IMG/VR virus record: IMGVR_UViG_3300025914_000009
Coordinates: 60,984-124,983 of that record
Length of the DNA: 64,000 nucleotides
Strand: one strand, 5' to 3'
Source: a virus
The notes beneath the pieces are model-generated. The model did no database searches. It saw nothing but the letters and a program-made list of their open reading frames with translations, and was not told where the DNA came from. Shown here in pieces: positions 6,069 through 20,270 of the stretch; positions within the stretch are counted from its first letter, which is position 1, and each line of letters starts with the position of its first letter. The position numbers and the translations under genes were made by a program.

Positions 6069-6640
6069 GTCTAAAATTCACCCGGTCAAAGACCGAAGAG
6101 CATTATTTTACTTCTGATTATCACTGGGGTCATACTAATGTCTTGAAATACGATGGTAGACCATTCGAAAGTATCGAAAATCATGACAAATATATTGTGG
6201 AATGCCACAACAGAGTTGTCAGACCAACAGACCATTTATGGTTCTTAGGTGACCTATCCCTTGGGGATCTAAAGGAGGCTGAACTCATGCTCAGAGATAT
6301 GAATGGGATTAAGCACTTCATCAAAGGCAACCATGATCATAATGAGACTATTGATATATACAAGAGATGTGGTATATATCATGGTGAACAGATCACCATT
6401 GTCATTGATGGGCAGAAGATCATTCTTAACCATTGCAGGATGTATGTATGGCCAAACTCCCATCATGGATCTTGGAATGTACATGGGCATTCACATGGTA
6501 CTCTTGACAATGCCCCCTGGGGGAAGAGTATGGACGTGTGCATCGCCATAAGGCATTATTACCCAATATCATACCCAGGGATAGGCACTATTATGACCAC
6601 CAAAGACATTTTGATAACTGATCACAGGAGAAAAGAGTAA
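6065..6640 (+). CDS. calcineurin-like metallophosphoesterase
   Basis: 191 aa. Metallophosphoesterase motifs are all present: SDYHWGH (D18, H20), LGDLS for the bridging metal Asp, KGNHDH, and HGHSHG near the C-terminus. Phage members of this group hydrolyse phosphodiesters of nucleic acids or 2'-3' cyclic nucleotides; the substrate cannot be read from the sequence. It is coupled by ATGA to 5748 and so shares an operon with the NADAR gene. Confidence 0.88.
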   Translation: MSLKFTRSKTEEHYFTSDYHWGHTNVLKYDGRPFESIENHDKYIVECHNRVVRPTDHLWFLGDLSLGDLKEAELMLRDMNGIKHFIKGNHDHNETIDIYKRCGIYHGEQITIVIDGQKIILNHCRMYVWPNSHHGSWNVHGHSHGTLDNAPWGKSMDVCIAIRHYYPISYPGIGTIMTTKDILITDHRRKE

Positions 6641-6923: not shown

Positions 6924-7499
6924 CTATCTGTAGAATCTGGACATATCCCTTTGTTTGGGAGATGACTGATAAGTACAAGATTCTCCATGATAGGTAAATG
7001 TGTAGCCTTTTGCAGATTTCCCTTTACCTGCAAGGATTCTATGAATAGTTGCTATGTGAAGAGAAAGTGCTTTGGCACAAGTCTTCATAGTTGGAAAAGT
7101 GGCAAAGAGAGACAAATCATGAATAAGATAAACATCAACTGACTTTACTCTTTTATGATGAGCTTCTCTGATCTTTTCGGCAGTTTTCTGAGAGCACTGA
7201 AAGTTTTCACCATTTGGTTCATAAATGTTGTAACCATATTCAGGAAGGTGAGAATTATGTTGTGAAATATAATAGACTTCTCTGGCTATCCTGTTCTCAA
7301 AAGTGCATTCTTCAAGTACATAGAAAGAAAATTTGTCTTTTCCATACTTGTTATAAGAACTTTGAAGATGGATAGAAAAATGGGTACCTTTACTCAACTG
7401 ACGAAAATGTGAATACTTTCTAGTCTTTGGAGATTTTGTAGAACCTATATAAACCTTATTGTTAACCAGGTTCTTTATTGCATATATGTAAGCTTTCAT
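6924..7499 (-). CDS. GIY-YIG homing endonuclease with NUMOD-type domain
   Basis: 191 aa, the only minus-strand gene in the left 47 kb. The N-terminus is a GIY-YIG nuclease domain (YIYAIKN..YIGST, with a conserved R-x-x-x-H stretch and NKYG). The C-terminal half (VYLIHDLSLFATFPTMKTCA then helix and KGYTF) is a NUMOD1/helix-turn-helix DNA-binding module. No intron is visible, so this is a free-standing homing endonuclease that has inserted between 6920 and the Ro60 gene; its orientation marks it as a recent mobile insertion. Confidence 0.88.
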   Translation of the reverse strand: MKAYIYAIKNLVNNKVYIGSTKSPKTRKYSHFRQLSKGTHFSIHLQSSYNKYGKDKFSFYVLEECTFENRIAREVYYISQHNSHLPEYGYNIYEPNGENFQCSQKTAEKIREAHHKRVKSVDVYLIHDLSLFATFPTMKTCAKALSLHIATIHRILAGKGKSAKGYTFTYHGESCTYQSSPKQRDMSRFYR

Positions 7500-7514: not shown

Positions 7515-7564
7515 ATTTGACAGCAAAAAACCAAATATTTCGACAAGATGTTTGACAGCAAAAA
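7515..7564 (+). promoter_or_regulatory. duplicated TTTGACAGCAAAAA motif at the Ro60 start
   Basis: The 14-mer TTTGACAGCAAAAA occurs at 7516-7529 and again at 7551-7564, straddling the Ro60 start codon at 7548. It contains ACAGCAAA, the constant motif of the nine RNA units downstream. The first copy lies in a small hairpin (ATTTG 7515-7519 with CAAAT 7532-7536). I infer an RNA-level binding site, perhaps for autoregulation by Ro60. The TTGACA part could instead be a promoter hexamer. Confidence 0.4.
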
Positions 7565-9254
7565 GACACAGTTATTCTCCATGCCGGAGAAGAAGAAAAC
7601 GACATCTGACTCACCATTTGTGCAAGCAGGTCTCAAAAAGAAAGCTCAAGTCCTATCAGGAAATGGAGCTATCAAGTATTCTACAACAGGGAATGCTTTT
7701 GTAGACCAGTTTGGTAAGATGGGAGAGTACAAAAAGCCCAGATCTTTCTCTGATATAGAAAAAGATTGCGAAGCTCTATGGGCAATTGATCCTTTGAGGG
7801 CAATCAAGATGAGCTTTTACATACGTACAATTACCAGACCTACCGACTTATTAGGAAAAACTACTTCCATTACCCAGAGGGGTGCTGAGCTTAAGCATGA
7901 GGGTATAATGAGGCTTATATGGTTGGCTACTAAAGATCAGCAAGCTTTCATAAAGAATCTATGGGTTCTTCCAGTCCTCGGATCATGGAAAGATATTATT
8001 ACAATGCTTCAGTATGATCTTGTATATCATGGATGGGGAGGTAGAGTTTTACCATGGGTAAGATTTGGTGATCTACTATTATCTGCCCTTGGGGATAAGA
8101 ATACTTGTGAACTGGTAAAGAAATACATACCTAGTATCAAGACCAATTCAAAATGTACTACTGTAGAAGCACAGGCTGATACCATGATTGCCAAATGGCT
8201 TTGCGGACTTCTATATCCTGAATATGTAGATAGTCCTGATGAGGTGCATGGTAAGTTTCATAAAAAGTACAGGAAGATGAAAACCTCAGGTACTGCTCAT
8301 GAATGGCAAAAGCTTATTTCTCAGAAGAAATTCGATAGAATAGACTTTGGTAAGATTCATGGGCGTGCTTTATCACTCCTTGTAAGGAGTAAATTCCTGA
8401 AGCGTCAAGGCTTACAGGATAAATATGCGGCATGGGTTAAGAAGCCTACTACAGAGGTTAAATACACAGGATATGTCCATGAGCTGTTCTCAGAACTCTT
8501 CCGAGGAAGTATGAGTGCAAAATACCCAACCTTGGCAAGTGTTCCAGAACATATGAGAGATACTATCAACAAACAGTTTGTGACCCTGGTTAACAAAGGT
8601 AAATCAGAGGATCATACCACCTCTCTGATTGTTGTTAGAGATACCTCAGGCTCAATGATGTCCACAGCTACGGGCACTAACATGTCTTCCTATGGAATCT
8701 CAAAGGCATTAGGGTTATACTTTGCAGAGTTCTTGGAGGGCCCATTTGCAAACTCTTGGATAGAATTTAACAGCGGAGCCAAGATGCACCAATGGACAGG
8801 TAAGACCCCGATTGAAAAATGGTTCAATGACACAAGTTCTGTTGTGGGAGGTACTGATTTTCAATCAGTTGTGAAATTATTCTGCCAAATAAAGGCTCAG
8901 GGAGTTCCTGAATCTCAATTCCCCTCAGGGATTCTATGTATTTCGGATGGTGAGTTCAATCCTGCCATGGCAAGCAAGACCAATGTAGAAAGCATGCTAC
9001 TTACTCTAAGAAATGCTGGTTTCAGTGAGGATTATGTAAGTAACTTTGTTATTGTCTTCTGGAACATACCTAATCAGTATTATGGAGCCATGTCTAGAAC
9101 AAAGTTCGAAACATATGGAAGTATCTCAAATGTATTCTACTTTGGGAGTTATTCAGCCTCTATAGTAGCCTTCTTAACATCCAAAATTCGAACAGCTGCA
9201 GAGCTGGTAGATGTAGCTCTTGATCAGGAAGTATTAAACTTAGTAAAGCTTTAG
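7548..9254 (+). CDS. Ro60/TROVE-domain RNA-binding protein (Ro/SS-A homologue)
   Basis: 568 aa, the usual Ro60 length. Residues about 40-350 form the helical HEAT-like TROVE ring (DPLRAIKMSFYIRT, LPVLGSWKDI). From about 355 a vWA domain carries an intact MIDAS: DTSGS at 365-369, GGTDF, SDGEF. Ro60 rings clamp ends of misfolded RNA in the central hole and bind Y RNAs on the outer surface; bacterial Ro60 works with exonucleases in RNA decay. The stop codon lies at the start of the first Y-like RNA unit (9254), and eight more follow at 10.35 kb, so protein and RNA partners appear co-encoded. Confidence 0.92.
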   Translation: MFDSKKTQLFSMPEKKKTTSDSPFVQAGLKKKAQVLSGNGAIKYSTTGNAFVDQFGKMGEYKKPRSFSDIEKDCEALWAIDPLRAIKMSFYIRTITRPTDLLGKTTSITQRGAELKHEGIMRLIWLATKDQQAFIKNLWVLPVLGSWKDIITMLQYDLVYHGWGGRVLPWVRFGDLLLSALGDKNTCELVKKYIPSIKTNSKCTTVEAQADTMIAKWLCGLLYPEYVDSPDEVHGKFHKKYRKMKTSGTAHEWQKLISQKKFDRIDFGKIHGRALSLLVRSKFLKRQGLQDKYAAWVKKPTTEVKYTGYVHELFSELFRGSMSAKYPTLASVPEHMRDTINKQFVTLVNKGKSEDHTTSLIVVRDTSGSMMSTATGTNMSSYGISKALGLYFAEFLEGPFANSWIEFNSGAKMHQWTGKTPIEKWFNDTSSVVGGTDFQSVVKLFCQIKAQGVPESQFPSGILCISDGEFNPAMASKTNVESMLLTLRNAGFSEDYVSNFVIVFWNIPNQYYGAMSRTKFETYGSISNVFYFGSYSASIVAFLTSKIRTAAELVDVALDQEVLNLVKL

Positions 9255-9345
9255 GGGCAGCTACAGCAAACACTATATTATACAGATTAATGCTGAACAA
9301 AATCCTGAGTGTTCTGAAGTTTCCCAGACAGGTGAATGCTGTCCC
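9254..9345 (+). ncRNA. Y-like RNA unit 0, abutting the Ro60 stop codon
   Basis: GGGGCAGC (9254-9261) pairs with GCTGTCCC (9338-9345) with one G-U; it is followed directly by TACAGCAAA as in the main array. The 5' strand begins on the last base of the Ro60 stop codon. The interior is about 70 nt and I see no full tRNA-like domain in it. Position and motif tie it to the Ro60 gene. Confidence 0.6.
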
Positions 9346-9446
9346 GTATACTCTCTAAAAGCCTTTGGGTGAATGGATGGATTAAAAGGATTTAGAGGCA
9401 GGGGTGAAAATTGAGATCCCCTGTCTCTTTTTTTAAATTCTATATT

Positions 9447-10025
9447 ATGAAGCTATCTGAAAAGGGTAAAGATATCATTGAGGTCTTCATATTTAACATG
9501 AAATGGATCTTGCTTGCTTTCCTTATCAAATTAGGATGGGATCTTATGGTTCTAGCCTATTTTGTATACAGTCAGCCTGAACTCACTCAAGCCCAGCTGA
9601 TGCATTTCATTGAGGATGTGGATATTACAATGATTGCAATCCTTATAAAGATGATGATAGCAGGTGGTTATAACTCTTCTATATCCAAGAAACATGATTT
9701 TGATTCAGAGAATATTAGTAGTGGGCAGTTAAAGATTAAGATGGGTACATCTATCATAGGTATCTCTTCTGTTCATATGCTAAAAGTATTCATGGAGTCA
9801 GAGAATTTGACTGTGGAAGAAATATGGAAGAAAACTATTGTCCACTGTGCTTTTATTGTTGGAGGACTAGCACTATCTTTGATTGATTATTTACACTGTA
9901 AAACAGAATCTCATGAGACAATACCTACTTCTGGCTCTTTGCCTCATGTTAATAACATGGGGATGTCTGGAGAACACTCATTTCCACAGATACAAGAAAG
10001 CAAAGGTTTACACGGAGAGAAATGA
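9447..10025 (+). CDS. YqhA/UPF0114-like membrane protein
   Basis: 192 aa from the ATG at 9447 (a TTG at 9411 would add twelve residues in an A/T-rich leader). Hydrophobic segments at about 17-38, 55-75, 100-120 and 135-155. The stretch HFIEDVDITMIAILI and the later GQLKIKMGTSIIGISSVHMLKVF match the layout of the UPF0114 (YqhA) family (E-x-x-D then D-L-K-x-K). Inner membrane; family function unknown. Its C-terminal codons overlap the next gene in another frame. Confidence 0.6.
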   Translation: MKLSEKGKDIIEVFIFNMKWILLAFLIKLGWDLMVLAYFVYSQPELTQAQLMHFIEDVDITMIAILIKMMIAGGYNSSISKKHDFDSENISSGQLKIKMGTSIIGISSVHMLKVFMESENLTVEEIWKKTIVHCAFIVGGLALSLIDYLHCKTESHETIPTSGSLPHVNNMGMSGEHSFPQIQESKGLHGEK

Positions 10026-10341
10026 TGATGGATCAGTCTTTCTTTACTATTACATATTAGCTACCTCCAATAACTATGGAGGGTCAAGCTATTATTATTA
10101 CTCCAGTAGGACTGCTGTTACTACATTCTCCCCTGCGGGCTGGTCAAACTCATCAATTGACCCAGTGAGCAAATTTGAAAACCTCAAGGAGGAGGATAAG
10201 GAGGTTGATGTTGATCTTGATGAAGAAGTTAATGGAGATATGATGGAAGAGATGCAAGACGATCCTGATATTTCAGAGGTAGGAGATGACTCAGCAGGTG
10301 ATTCCTCTGGAGATTCATCAGGGGATGGTTCAGGTGACTAA
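9913..10341 (+). CDS. putative lipoprotein with acidic Ser/Gly/Asp tail
   Basis: Starting at the ATG at 9913, the protein begins with a lipoprotein signal (MRQYLLLALCLMLITWGC; Cys at 18). A Tyr/Ser-rich segment and a strongly acidic D/S/G repeat tail follow. The first 113 nt overlap the YqhA-like gene in the +1 frame, an arrangement reminiscent of embedded spanin lipoproteins, although the acidic tail is not spanin-like. Membrane-anchored, function unknown. Confidence 0.5.
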   Translation: MRQYLLLALCLMLITWGCLENTHFHRYKKAKVYTERNDDGSVFLYYYILATSNNYGGSSYYYYSSRTAVTTFSPAGWSNSSIDPVSKFENLKEEDKEVDVDLDEEVNGDMMEEMQDDPDISEVGDDSAGDSSGDSSGDGSGD

Positions 10342-10348
10342 TTTCAAA

Positions 10349-10407
10349 AGGGCACATACAGCAAACATTATAACAATTCACCTACATTTGAATTAAAAGT
10401 GTGCCCT
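10349..10407 (+). ncRNA. Y-like RNA unit 1 (minimal type)
   Basis: AGGGCACA (10349-10356) pairs with TGTGCCCT (10400-10407), 8 bp, followed by TACAGCAAA. At 59 nt it is the shortest form: closing stem, motif, A/T-rich loop with a weak TTCA/TGAA hairpin, and TTAAAAG before the 3' strand. GTTAA separates it from unit 2. Confidence 0.65.
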
Positions 10408-10411
10408 GTTA

Positions 10412-10531
10412 AGGTCTGCAACAGCAAATATATCCTTGTGGCACTGGGGGTCAGTGGTGGAAATCCACTCTGTGGGGAAACCCAAAGTAGCTTAGTACTT
10501 AGAGCACCAGTTGGAGAAAAAATGCAGACCT
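10412..10531 (+). ncRNA. Y-like RNA unit 2 with permuted tRNA-like domain
   Basis: Closing stem AGGTCTGCA/TGCAGACCT (9 bp), then ACAGCAAA. Inside, tRNA parts come in permuted order: anticodon-stem 3' strand ACTGG (10443-10447), variable GGGTC, T arm AGTGG-TGGAAAT-CCACT (10453-10469), acceptor 3' strand CTGTGGG, GAAA tetraloop (10477-10480), acceptor 5' strand CCCAAAG, TA, D arm (10490-10505), then CCAGT (10507-10511), which pairs with ACTGG. The acceptor stem is thus a capped hairpin, and the closing stem replaces the anticodon loop. One A-G mismatch in the acceptor. This is the clearest YrlA-like unit. Confidence 0.75.
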
Positions 10532-10535
10532 GTTA

Positions 10536-10649
10536 AGATACCTAACAGCAAACAATTTGATCCTCTTGTGGATTAGTAGCTTAATTGGTAAAGCGCCCAA
10601 TTGATAATTGGGAGATCCTAGTTCAATTCTAGGCTTTAAAGAGGTATCT
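10536..10649 (+). ncRNA. Y-like RNA unit 3 with tRNA-Ile(GAU)-like core
   Basis: Closing stem AGATACCT/AGGTATCT, then AACAGCAAA. The interior keeps normal tRNA order: D arm 10579-10594, anticodon arm CCCAA-TTGATAA-TTGGG (10596-10612; anticodon GAT), T arm CCTAG-TTCAATT-CTAGG (10617-10633). The expected acceptor strands (GGATTAG against CTTTAAA) do not pair, so the unit's own closing stem takes the acceptor position, with an extra ATCC/GGAT hairpin inserted before the D arm. A canonical aminoacylatable tRNA-Ile is unlikely. Confidence 0.65.
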
Positions 10650-10653
10650 GATA

Positions 10654-10842
10654 AGGGTTCTTACAGCAAATATTAGCAAATGGAAACCTTTGGTCGGAGG
10701 TTCAAATCCTCCCCTCCCAACCAGATTTGGTGTCACCCTAAGGTGTTCAGGACAGCCAAATCTGGTGACTAATCAACCTGACCATATCTGGTTGGGAGGT
10801 AGCTCAGTCTGGTTAGAGCAGAGGATGCAACAAAAGAACCCT
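10654..10842 (+). ncRNA. Y-like RNA unit 4: permuted tRNA with encoded CCA
   Basis: Closing stem AGGGTTCT/AGAACCCT, then TACAGCAAA. The 3' half of a tRNA comes first: T arm GGAGG-TTCAAAT-CCTCC (10696-10712), acceptor strand CCTCCCA (10713-10719), A73 and CCA (10721-10723). After a 69-nt hairpin-rich spacer comes the 5' half: TGGGAGG (10793-10799, perfect 7-bp match), TA, D arm GCTC..GAGC with GG in the loop, and GAGGA pairing partly with ACCTT (10686-10690). If the spacer were removed at CCA, a mature-looking acceptor end would result. Confidence 0.75.
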
Positions 10843-10846
10843 GATA

Positions 10847-10906
10847 AGGAGACTTACAGCAAAACAACTCAACTTTCAACCGTTTATTTGAAATAGAGAG
10901 TCTCCT
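10847..10906 (+). ncRNA. Y-like RNA unit 5 (minimal type)
   Basis: AGGAGACT/AGTCTCCT closes a 60-nt unit with TACAGCAAA directly after the 5' strand. The loop is A/T-rich with no stable inner domain. Same class as units 1 and 8. Confidence 0.65.
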
Positions 10907-10910
10907 GATA

Positions 10911-10999
10911 AAGTGCCACACAGCAAATATTAATTCTTTTTCAACAAAGACCGCCCCTGGATGGGAGGAAGCTAAAGAGGTTCGATTCCTCAGGCACTT
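10911..10999 (+). ncRNA. Y-like RNA unit 6 with T arm joined to the closing stem
   Basis: AAGTGCC (10911-10917) pairs perfectly with GGCACTT (10993-10999); CACAGCAAA follows the 5' strand. Directly before the 3' strand lies a T arm, AGAGG-TTCGATT-CCTCA (10976-10992), so here the closing stem is geometrically an acceptor stem stacked on the T arm as in a tRNA. The D-arm region is replaced by the motif and an A/T-rich stretch. Confidence 0.65.
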
Positions 11000-11003
11000 G
11001 ATA

Positions 11004-11150
11004 AGGTGAGCAGCAGCATTTAACTAAATAATGGCCCTAAGGTTGGGAAAACTGAAACAGTCATACCGATACTCTCATAGGTTAATACGAAAAGAGTAGT
11101 GTCAAAGGCCCCAAGGGGTACTGGCGGCTATACAAAGAATATGCTCATCT
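11004..11150 (+). ncRNA. Y-like RNA unit 7 (large, diverged motif)
   Basis: AGGTGAGCA/TGCTCATCT (9 bp with one G-U). The motif here reads GCAGCATTT, a variant of ACAGCAAA. The 130-nt interior has GGCC (11033 and 11107) and ACTG/CAGT (11052 and 11058) hairpin options but no tRNA-like loops that I can see. Confidence 0.55.
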
Positions 11151-11154
11151 GATA

Positions 11155-11214
11155 AGGTCACATACAGCAAAAAGCTAAAAGCAATCATCTTGTAAATGAT
11201 AAAAACTGTGACCT
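11155..11214 (+). ncRNA. Y-like RNA unit 8 (minimal type, last of array)
   Basis: AGGTCACA/TGTGACCT closes 60 nt with TACAGCAAA after the 5' strand and a small ATCAT/ATGAT hairpin inside. The trailing GATAAG is present but no further unit follows. Confidence 0.65.
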
Positions 11215-11251
11215 GATAAGTAGAGTCTGAAAACCTAAAACATTAATTACG

Positions 11252-11352
11252 TACCCCCACTACAGGTTGGACTATTTCTATTATCCTACGCCAAGTTCAT
11301 TGACATATGGTTGGTGAATTATCTCCTGTTTGATTTGATAGTAGTGGTGGTA
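11252..11352 (+). ncRNA. 101-nt structured RNA after the Y-like array
   Basis: TACCCCCACTAC (11252-11263) pairs with GTAGTGGTGGTA (11341-11352), 12 positions with one mismatch, enclosing CAGG/CCTG and CCAA/TTGG helices. It lacks ACAGCAAA, so it is a different element, possibly the leader of the gene at 11372. The gap 11215-11371 holds nothing else. Confidence 0.4.
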
Positions 11353-11371
11353 TGTCTAAAACCACATTAAC

Positions 11372-11749
11372 ATGACCCCTGAACAGGTAAGAGATCTATG
11401 TATCAATATAGACATGAAATGTCTTGGTAATGATTCGTTCTACCTAAGGATAGAAAGGGATAATGAGCAACCTGTCGATGGGAGAGTCTTTATTCAGGTT
11501 AATTACAGTGCTCCTTGCATAAAGACTGGTGAGTTGAGACAATGGAGTGGTAGAAAGTGGTATCTTTCCAGACACATGACTCAAGATGAAGTGATTAAGA
11601 CAGCATTTGCTGCTTTCAAGGCTGCAGTAGAACATGAGATTCTGGAAGGGTTTAGCGTAGGGGGAAAATTACTATTCAATCCTCATGTTGACTTTACAGA
11701 ATTATTATCTATCTCCCAGAGGGAGGTAAAAAGAACAGAACAAACTTAA
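11372..11749 (+). CDS. conserved phage hypothetical protein, 125 aa
   Basis: Contains GRVFIQVNYSAPC, TGELRQWSGRKWYLS, MTQDEVIKTAFAAFKAAVEHE and FNPHVDF, a layout I have seen in many tailed-phage genomes without a known function. The conserved tryptophans and EHE/NPH motifs suggest a compact alpha/beta domain. The start at 11372 follows CACATTAAC. Confidence 0.65.
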   Translation: MTPEQVRDLCINIDMKCLGNDSFYLRIERDNEQPVDGRVFIQVNYSAPCIKTGELRQWSGRKWYLSRHMTQDEVIKTAFAAFKAAVEHEILEGFSVGGKLLFNPHVDFTELLSISQREVKRTEQT

Positions 11750-19851: not shown

Positions 19852-19952
19852 AGTCAGATAGCTCAGTTGGTTAGAGTACCTGCTAGGGCTTGATCGAAAG
19901 ATCAACGAAGCTGCCGCACAGGAGGTCAGGAGTTCGAATCTCCCTCTGACTT
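19852..19952 (+). tRNA. tRNA-like gene with hairpin insertion in the anticodon loop
   Basis: Acceptor AGTCAGA (19852-19858) with TCTGACT (19945-19951) is perfect; D arm GCTC..GAGT with GG; T arm AGGAG-TTCGAAT-CTCCC. Between CCTG (19879-19882) and CAGG (19919-19922) lie 36 nt instead of about 9, including a hairpin TTGATC-GAAA-GATCAA. If the extra 28 nt were removed the loop would read CTGCCGC (anticodon GCC). No CCA; ends 2 nt before a start codon. The motif TTTGACAGCGAAA, close to the Ro60-leader motif, lies upstream (19834-19846). Confidence 0.65.
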
Positions 19953-20212: not shown

Positions 20213-20270
20213 AGGGGGATAGCTCAGTGGTAGAGCATTCTTGTCGGAAGTTCGATTCTTCCTCCCCCTA
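20213..20270 (+). ncRNA. tRNA-like element lacking an anticodon arm
   Basis: AGGGGGA/TCCCCCT acceptor stem (perfect), TA, D arm GCTC-AGTGGTA-GAGC, A26, then only eight bases (TTCTTGTC) before the T arm GGAAG-TTCGATT-CTTCC, and ACA at the 3' end. The anticodon stem-loop is absent, so it cannot decode. It ends 2 nt before the DNA polymerase start codon. It could be a processing signal for RNase P/Z or a tRNA mimic. Confidence 0.65.

What the first reader, a model, noticed from the sequence alone, without database searches (positions are those of the whole stretch)
10412..10531. Unit 2 is a circularly permuted tRNA mimic with a capped acceptor stem and swapped elbow pair
tRNA parts appear in the order T arm, acceptor 3' strand, GAAA tetraloop, acceptor 5' strand, D arm, with the anticodon stem (CCAGT/ACTGG) continuing into the closing stem. 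The T loop reads TGGAAAT and the D loop AGTACTTA, so the normal G19-C56 contact becomes C19-G56: both sides changed together. That supports a real tRNA-like elbow rather than chance similarity. A GAAA cap at the acceptor means it cannot be aminoacylated.
Basis: seen in the sequence. Interest (0 to 1): 0.85.

Follow-up and report, generated by a model that had tools for sequence, protein, structure and literature searches.

The report
Phage array of tRNA-mimicking Ro60 RNAs

Summary
Unit 2 (10413-10530) has every stem of a tRNA in circularly permuted order with exact tRNA lengths. The same descriptor finds nothing else in the window, in 60 simulated windows, or in about 1.7 Mb of other viral DNA. 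It is one of about nine tandem units, each made of AAG, a 7-bp stem, ACAGCAA, a variable insert, and the stem's partner followed by CTG(A/T)TAAG. The neighbouring gene (7548-9254) is predicted to fold as Ro60. All 19 array-bearing viral records checked encode this protein; 2 of 19 controls do. 29 other permuted tRNA units share the plan, and Rfam's Y RNA model YrlA hits many of them, so permuted tRNA mimicry is of a known kind (YrlA). Three things look new: the tandem array; short units whose hairpins are anticodon stem-loops (19 loops of form CUNNUAA against 0.06 expected); and units resembling 23S rRNA helices 69-71. The common stem also resembles Dictyostelium Class I RNAs. The elbow-swap claim is not supported: all 29 homologues keep GG and UUC, and only unit 2 differs. 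Most likely the array is a set of Y-RNA-like, Ro60-bound decoys; the decoy function is inference.

The parts
7548..9254 (+). Ro60-like protein (568 aa; DUF7788/DUF2828), HEAT-repeat ring plus vWA domain
   Evidence: AF2 with alignment A1 (pLDDT 75, pTM 0.76); best PDB matches are all Ro60 (Z 18.1 to 1yvp, 16.1 to TROVE 9kop, 13.9 to phage phiLo Ro60, next non-Ro60 Z 8.8); Pfam DUF7788 over its cut-off
9256..9344 (+). U0: probable extra unit, stem GGCAGC 9256-9261 / GCTGTC 9338-9343, TACAGCAAA motif; starts just after the Ro60 stop codon
   Evidence: read from sequence; relatives also have a unit immediately after the gene (L237, L178)
10350..10406 (+). U1: short unit, closing stem GGGCACA/TGTGCCC
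   Evidence: weak Dicty Class I RNA hit 21.9 bits
10413..10530 (+). U2 (the finding): permuted tRNA mimic, GAAA-capped acceptor, atypical T loop TGGAAAT and D loop AGTACTTA
10453..10469 (+). U2 T arm
10470..10487 (+). U2 acceptor stem, 3' strand - GAAA - 5' strand
10490..10505 (+). U2 D arm
10537..10648 (+). U3: unpermuted tRNA-Ile(GAT)-like body (10575-10635) whose acceptor stem is replaced by the unit stem
   Evidence: Rfam tRNA 52.6 bits, model 6-65
10655..10841 (+). U4: permuted tRNA mimic with canonical elbow (TTCAAAT / AGTCTGGTTA), 7/7 acceptor pairs, 73-nt hairpin cap
   Evidence: YrlA RF02553 31.9 bits, E 8e-5
10848..10905 (+). U5: short unit
   Evidence: Class I RNA 24.7 bits
10912..10998 (+). 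U6: unit with a T-arm (GAGGTTCGATTCCTC); source RNA of the rest not identified
   Evidence: similar units in L234, L178, L244, L287
11005..11149 (+). U7: 23S rRNA-like unit; 11028-11050 matches 23S 1916-1938 and 11117-11131 resembles the strand before H69, so H69 (GGCTAT 11126-11131 / ATGGCC 11031-11036) is opened at its loop
   Evidence: homologue L234:10203-10349; unpermuted relative L244:10543-10716 matches 23S 1909-1934 at 23 of 26
11156..11213 (+). U8: anticodon stem-loop unit, ATCAT-CTTGTAA-ATGAT (Thr UGU type) at 11184-11200
   Evidence: Class I RNA 24.6 bits

Best explanation
The region is a tandem array of Y-RNA-like RNAs made by a phage together with their own Ro60-like protein. Each unit has a common basal module (AAG, covarying 7-bp stem, single-stranded ACAGCAA, CTG tail) that most likely docks on the Ro60-like ring (inferred). 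Each also has a variable head, and several heads copy part of a host RNA: the elbow/acceptor half of a tRNA in permuted order (U2, U4), a tRNA body (U3), an anticodon stem-loop (U8), or the 23S rRNA H69-71 region (U7). The heads are most likely decoys: they hold host enzymes that cut or modify tRNA and rRNA, such as anticodon nucleases and other RNA-damaging defences, or the tRNA/rRNA modification enzymes, and so protect translation during infection. Shown here: the anatomy, its conservation and covariation, the mimicry, and the linkage to Ro60. Inferred: binding to Ro60, processing of the array into units, and the decoy action. (Identity as Ro60-linked Y-RNA-like array: about 0.9; decoy mechanism: the confidence given here.)
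For: Ro60 fold. 19/19 array records encode the protein against 2/19 controls (9 of the 19 proteins built the profile). In the reverse search, 50 loci found by protein alone: 31 hold strict units, all on the gene's strand and none on the other. Motif controls: 63 units against 0, 4 and 0 with scrambled motifs. Basal stem covariation 0.864 against 0.25 in shuffles and <=0.165 when slid. Permuted heads: 95% of cells paired, 18 of 21 pairs with double changes. YrlA model: 15 matches at E<=1e-4 in 26 array records. Anticodon loops: 19 CUNNUAA among 57 short units against 0.06 expected. rRNA units. For the decoy idea: a Salmonella study proposed YrlA as a competitive inhibitor of an anticodon nuclease (PMC7790460), and bacterial immunity commonly attacks anticodon loops (PMC7824862).
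Against: No expression, binding or phenotype data. YrlA was not cut by the Salmonella nuclease (PMC7790460), and permuted heads have no anticodon loop to cut. D. radiodurans Y RNA is known as a tether for PNPase rather than a decoy. The enzyme(s) engaged are unknown. Some units (U0, U1, U5, U6) match no identified host RNA. Shuffle controls ignore relatedness among phages.
Confidence: 0.45

Rival explanations
1. RYPER-like scaffold: the units tether the Ro60-like ring to host RNA-processing or decay enzymes (PNPase and others), and the tRNA/rRNA heads are addresses that steer the machine to these substrates or enzymes.
For: D. radiodurans Rsr is tethered by Y RNA to PNPase and YrlA's tRNA-like domain is a substrate of DusA and TruB (PMC8394870); U4 and many units match YrlA.
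Against: The variety of heads (anticodon loops, 23S pieces) is more than one tether would need; unit 2's G55 could not be pseudouridylated by TruB; no PNPase contact tested.
Confidence: 0.35
2. Captured tRNA/rRNA pieces act only as stable caps that keep Y RNAs structured or gate the Ro60 ring; sequence identity of the source has no function.
For: Source RNAs differ between phages and cap lengths vary widely; some units carry only plain A-rich hairpins.
Against: Conserved UUCRA/GG elbow in 29 units and near-exact anticodon loops with U36-A37-A38 point to recognition, not bare stability.
Confidence: 0.13
3. Permuted tRNA genes: the units are matured by excision and ligation into working tRNAs, as in algae and archaea.
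For: U4 has a full 7-bp acceptor followed by ACCA and ARAGORN accepts rotated sequences.
Against: The anticodon loop is where the unit opens and carries the Ro60-type stem, so no anticodon exists; acceptor capped by short loops, for example GAAA; other units are anticodon arms alone.
Confidence: 0.03
4. Chance resemblance or decayed tRNA genes.
For: The phage also carries ordinary tRNA-like sequences.
Against: 0 descriptor hits in 60 simulated windows; strong covariation in both basal and head stems.
Confidence: 0.01

Closest known systems
YrlA, bacterial Y RNA (Rfam RF02553; Salmonella, mycobacteriophages)
   Same: tRNA-like head with T, acceptor and D arms in the same permuted order; next to a Ro60-type gene; CM matches at E down to 2e-8
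   Different: Basal stem and motif differ from the YrlA consensus and scores stay below the gathering cut-off of 69 bits; here many units in tandem with several kinds of head
Dictyostelium Class I RNA (Rfam RF01414)
   Same: AAG start, 6-7-bp covarying end stem with an outer G-C pair, ACAGCAA-type motif beside the 5' strand, CUGU-type end (PMC7919456); CM hits in 18/19 array records against 1/19 controls, up to 39.7 bits
   Different: Best scores just below the gathering cut-off of 41.5; eukaryotic genes have their own DUSE promoters; described as unique to dictyostelids; known partner there is an RRM protein and the paper does not mention Ro60
Ro60 / Rsr (TROVE) ribonucleoproteins
   Same: Predicted Ro60 fold over most of the protein
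   Different: No match to Pfam TROVE; belongs to DUF2828/DUF7788, about 10% identity to solved Ro60
Listeria phage CKA15 Rsr-like protein with highly transcribed non-coding regions (PMC12282133)
   Same: Phage Ro60-like gene beside abundant putative Y RNAs
   Different: Related phage A511 shows a ROOL RNA and tRNAs near the gene rather than this array

Membership tests
Bacterial Y RNA (YrlA type) | tRNA-like head: T arm, acceptor, D arm in permuted order | tested here: met
   U4 31.9 bits to RF02553; permuted descriptor and covariation for U2 and homologues
Bacterial Y RNA (YrlA type) | Score above Rfam gathering cut-off (69 bits), including the consensus basal stem | tested here: not met
   Best 39.4 bits; several basal-stem pairs broken
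Bacterial Y RNA (YrlA type) | Encoded next to a Ro60-type gene | tested here: met
Bacterial Y RNA (YrlA type) | Bound by Ro60 | not testable with these tools
   Needs a binding experiment
Ro60 | HEAT-ring plus vWA fold | tested here: met
   Top PDB matches are all Ro60, Z 13.7-18.1
Ro60 | Pfam TROVE domain PF05731 | tested here: not met
   No match in 19 records while the Deinobacterium control rang
Dictyostelium Class I RNA | End stem plus adjacent ACAGCAA-type motif, AAG start, CUGU-type end | tested here: met
   Motif-only set of 51 units; features from PMC7919456
Dictyostelium Class I RNA | Rfam gathering score 41.5 | tested here: not met
   Best 39.7 and 39.3 bits
Dictyostelium Class I RNA | DUSE promoter about 60 nt upstream | not tested
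   Eukaryotic promoter, not expected in a phage
tRNA gene | Anticodon loop and free 3' CCA end | tested here: not met
   U2 lacks both; acceptor closed by GAAA, anticodon loop opened into the unit stem

The most novel reading that the evidence does not exclude
Phage Ro60-like proteins carry a library of dissected host RNAs (tRNA elbows, U36-A37-A38 anticodon arms, 23S H69-71) on a shared docking stem, as decoys against RNA-cutting host defences; and Dictyostelium Class I RNAs, whose function is unsettled, belong to the same family as Y-type RNAs of a DUF2828 Ro60-like protein.
Probability: 0.25. Interest if true: 0.92.

Novelty: new variant of a known kind. Interest (0 to 1): 0.8.

Why it matters
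Y RNAs are known as single tRNA mimics. An array that mimics separate parts of tRNAs and of 23S rRNA on one docking stem would be a modular decoy or address system in phages, and it links two RNA classes (bacterial Y RNAs and dictyostelid Class I RNAs) that, as far as I could find, have not been connected. A cultured phage, Leptolyngbya phage Lbo-JY46, carries the same gene and array, so it can be tested at once.

Tried and rejected
Query with the single window protein in viral contigs found no relative; the profile did. Single-sequence AF2 was useless. Pfam TROVE search of the array records: nothing. Phage DNA similarity to the array region gave only short matches; the 81% hit in Pseudomonas phage CRC2 lies in an unannotated record and was not followed further. 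U2 D-arm pattern in viral contigs: two hits, both judged chance. Gapped alignment of units to E. coli rRNA was noise; ungapped matching was informative for the L244 unit (score 17 against null maximum 13) but only weakly so for U7 and L234 taken alone. Blastn of U7 against E. coli genomes: nothing. Promoter/terminator scan of 9200-11400: no excess. The YrlA count at E<=0.1 (18 of 26 records) is not discriminating on its own, because 11 of 14 control genomes also ring weakly, presumably through tRNAs; I rely on the strong matches. The idea that unit 2's elbow swap is conserved was tested in homologues and rejected. Chen 2014, Wang 2018 and Sim & Wolin 2018 (YrlA papers) are not held in the library, so YrlA details rest on PMC8394870 and PMC7790460.

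Full report
1. What was checked. The finding describes 10412-10531 as a circularly permuted tRNA mimic. The sequence confirms it: in the order anticodon-3' strand, variable loop, T arm, acceptor 3' strand, GAAA, acceptor 5' strand, D arm, anticodon-5' strand, every element has canonical tRNA length. One acceptor pair (A-G) is broken. A descriptor that demands all helices plus U8, A14, A21, U54 and A58 hits only this site in the window, none in 60 simulated windows on both strands, and none in about 1.7 Mb of other viral loci; the six listed hits there are copies of the window. Rotated into normal order with an artificial anticodon loop and variable loop, ARAGORN accepts 29 of 30 such units including this one, against 30 of 200 when halves from different units are mixed.

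2. The unit is one of a tandem array. Eight units (10350-11213), and probably a ninth at 9256-9344, share AAG, a 7-bp stem, ACAGCAA, an insert of variable length, the stem's partner and CTG(A/T)TAAG. The minimum-energy fold of the whole stretch closes the units separately (z -3.0). Fifty-one units collected by motif alone, without asking for pairing, form 88% standard pairs in the stem, with a covariation score of 0.864 against 0.25 for shuffles and at most 0.165 when slid. Even the outermost pair covaries: AAG...CTG or AAA...TTG.

3. The neighbour is Ro60. The protein at 7548-9254 matches only DUF7788 and, weakly, DUF2828 in Pfam as plausible families. An AF2 model from nine phage homologues has Ro60 structures as its best matches (Z 13.7-18.1; next fold 8.8), including Ro60 of Thermus phage phiLo. 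A profile of these proteins finds the gene in 19 of 19 array records and in 2 of 19 control records. Caveat: nine of the 19 proteins built the profile, while ten did not. In the opposite direction, 50 loci found by protein alone contain strict units in 31, all on the gene's strand and none on the other, mostly within 1 kb downstream of the gene.

4. What the heads mimic. (a) Permuted tRNAs: 29 units in related phages, with UUCRANN T loops and GG-containing D loops; in 22 of them plus U2, 95% of helix cells pair and 18 of 21 pairs show double changes (the units were chosen by pairing, so the double changes are the informative part). Rfam's YrlA model hits U4 (E 8e-5) and gives 15 matches at E<=1e-4 in 26 array records. 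Mycobacterium phage Moostard has a classical single copy 150 nt downstream of its Ro-like gene, and YrlA is hit there too. (b) A tRNA-Ile-like body without its own acceptor (U3). (c) Anticodon arms: of 57 short units, 36 have a 7-nt-loop hairpin and 19 of these read CUNNUAA, against 0.06 expected from shuffles (maximum 1 in 200); anticodons include Lys UUU, Thr UGU, Arg UCU, Met CAU, Ile GAU and Asn GUU, all with U36-A37-A38. U8 in the window is of the Thr UGU type. The unit set contains related phages and a few doubtful units, so the counts are not independent events. (d) 23S rRNA: U7 and its relative in L234 resemble the strands around helix 69-71 with the helix opened at its loop; L244 holds 23 of 26 bases of 23S 1909-1934 in normal order. 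For U7 alone the match is within the shuffled range and rests on the relatives. (e) U0, U1, U5 and U6 were not traced to a source.

5. The elbow claim. Homologues always keep G18-G19 / U55-C56. Unit 2 alone has G55-G56 and a D loop AGUACUUA. A C19-G56 pair is possible but unreplicated, and the D-loop register is free, so the claimed compensatory change is not evidence of its own.

6. A second family resemblance. The basal module is nearly that of Dictyostelium Class I RNAs (AAG start, end stem with a conserved outer G-C pair, 11-nt motif, CUGU end; PMC7919456). Rfam's Class I model hits 18 of 19 array records (best 39.7 bits, E 2e-7) and 1 of 19 controls; a unit of the cultured Leptolyngbya phage scores 39.3. 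All stay just below the gathering score of 41.5, so common descent is possible but not shown; convergence on a short stem-plus-motif is the alternative.

7. How it most likely works. Shown: anatomy, recurrence, covariation, linkage to a Ro60-fold protein. Inferred: the stem and ACAGCAA dock on the Ro60-like ring; the array is processed into single RNAs; the heads engage host proteins that act on tRNA and rRNA. I favour decoys because the heads cover separate targets (elbow, anticodon arm, H69-71) rather than one, and because bacterial immunity often attacks anticodon loops (PMC7824862). A decoy role was proposed for YrlA (PMC7790460), yet YrlA was not cut by the nuclease in that study. A scaffold role with PNPase, as in D. 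radiodurans (PMC8394870), remains close behind.

8. Known or new. Permuted tRNA mimicry in a Ro60-linked RNA is known (YrlA), and phage Ro60-like genes and Y RNAs are known (PMC12282133, PMC7824862, PMC12363180). I found no report in the searched library of tandem arrays, anticodon-arm or rRNA heads, or the Class I link; the main YrlA papers could not be read, so this is not proof of absence.

Noticed in passing
window 19852-19952: tRNA-like RNA (Rfam 45.1 bits) whose anticodon loop is replaced by a hairpin insert with a GAAA loop; not called by ARAGORN.
   Followed up: partly
window 20213-20270: tRNA-like RNA (Rfam 49.7 bits) that lacks the anticodon arm; possibly another tRNA mimic outside the array.
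   Followed up: partly
window 9344-9430: Stretch after U0 ending in a GC-rich hairpin and T run (CAGGGGTGAAAATTGAGATCCCCTG-TCTCTTTTTTT), conserved in relative L012 (about 2820-2730, minus strand).
   Followed up: no
window 10912-10998; L234:10877-10965; L178:8499-8590; L287:6803-6880: U6-type units share CCTG.C.GTGG...GGAA.CTAAA plus a T arm; the source RNA was not identified.
   Followed up: partly
L288:3237-3788: In Listeria phage A511 a ROOL RNA match (87.5 bits, below its cut-off of 99.1) lies about 1 kb upstream of the Ro60-like gene, among tRNAs, with a tRNA splicing ligase and an RNA ligase downstream.
   Followed up: no
L291:6852-6966: Citrobacter phage Ci1 has a tRNA-like RNA with a large insert downstream of its Ro60-like gene (gene ends at 6362), with a pseudo-tRNA annotated next to it.
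   Followed up: no
L287:6669-7013: Cultured Leptolyngbya phage Lbo-JY46 carries five such units in the unannotated gap after its Ro60-like gene, including two with a CTTTTAA (Lys) loop.
   Followed up: yes
window 6924-7499: GIY-YIG homing-type endonuclease on the minus strand next to the Ro60-like gene.
   Followed up: no
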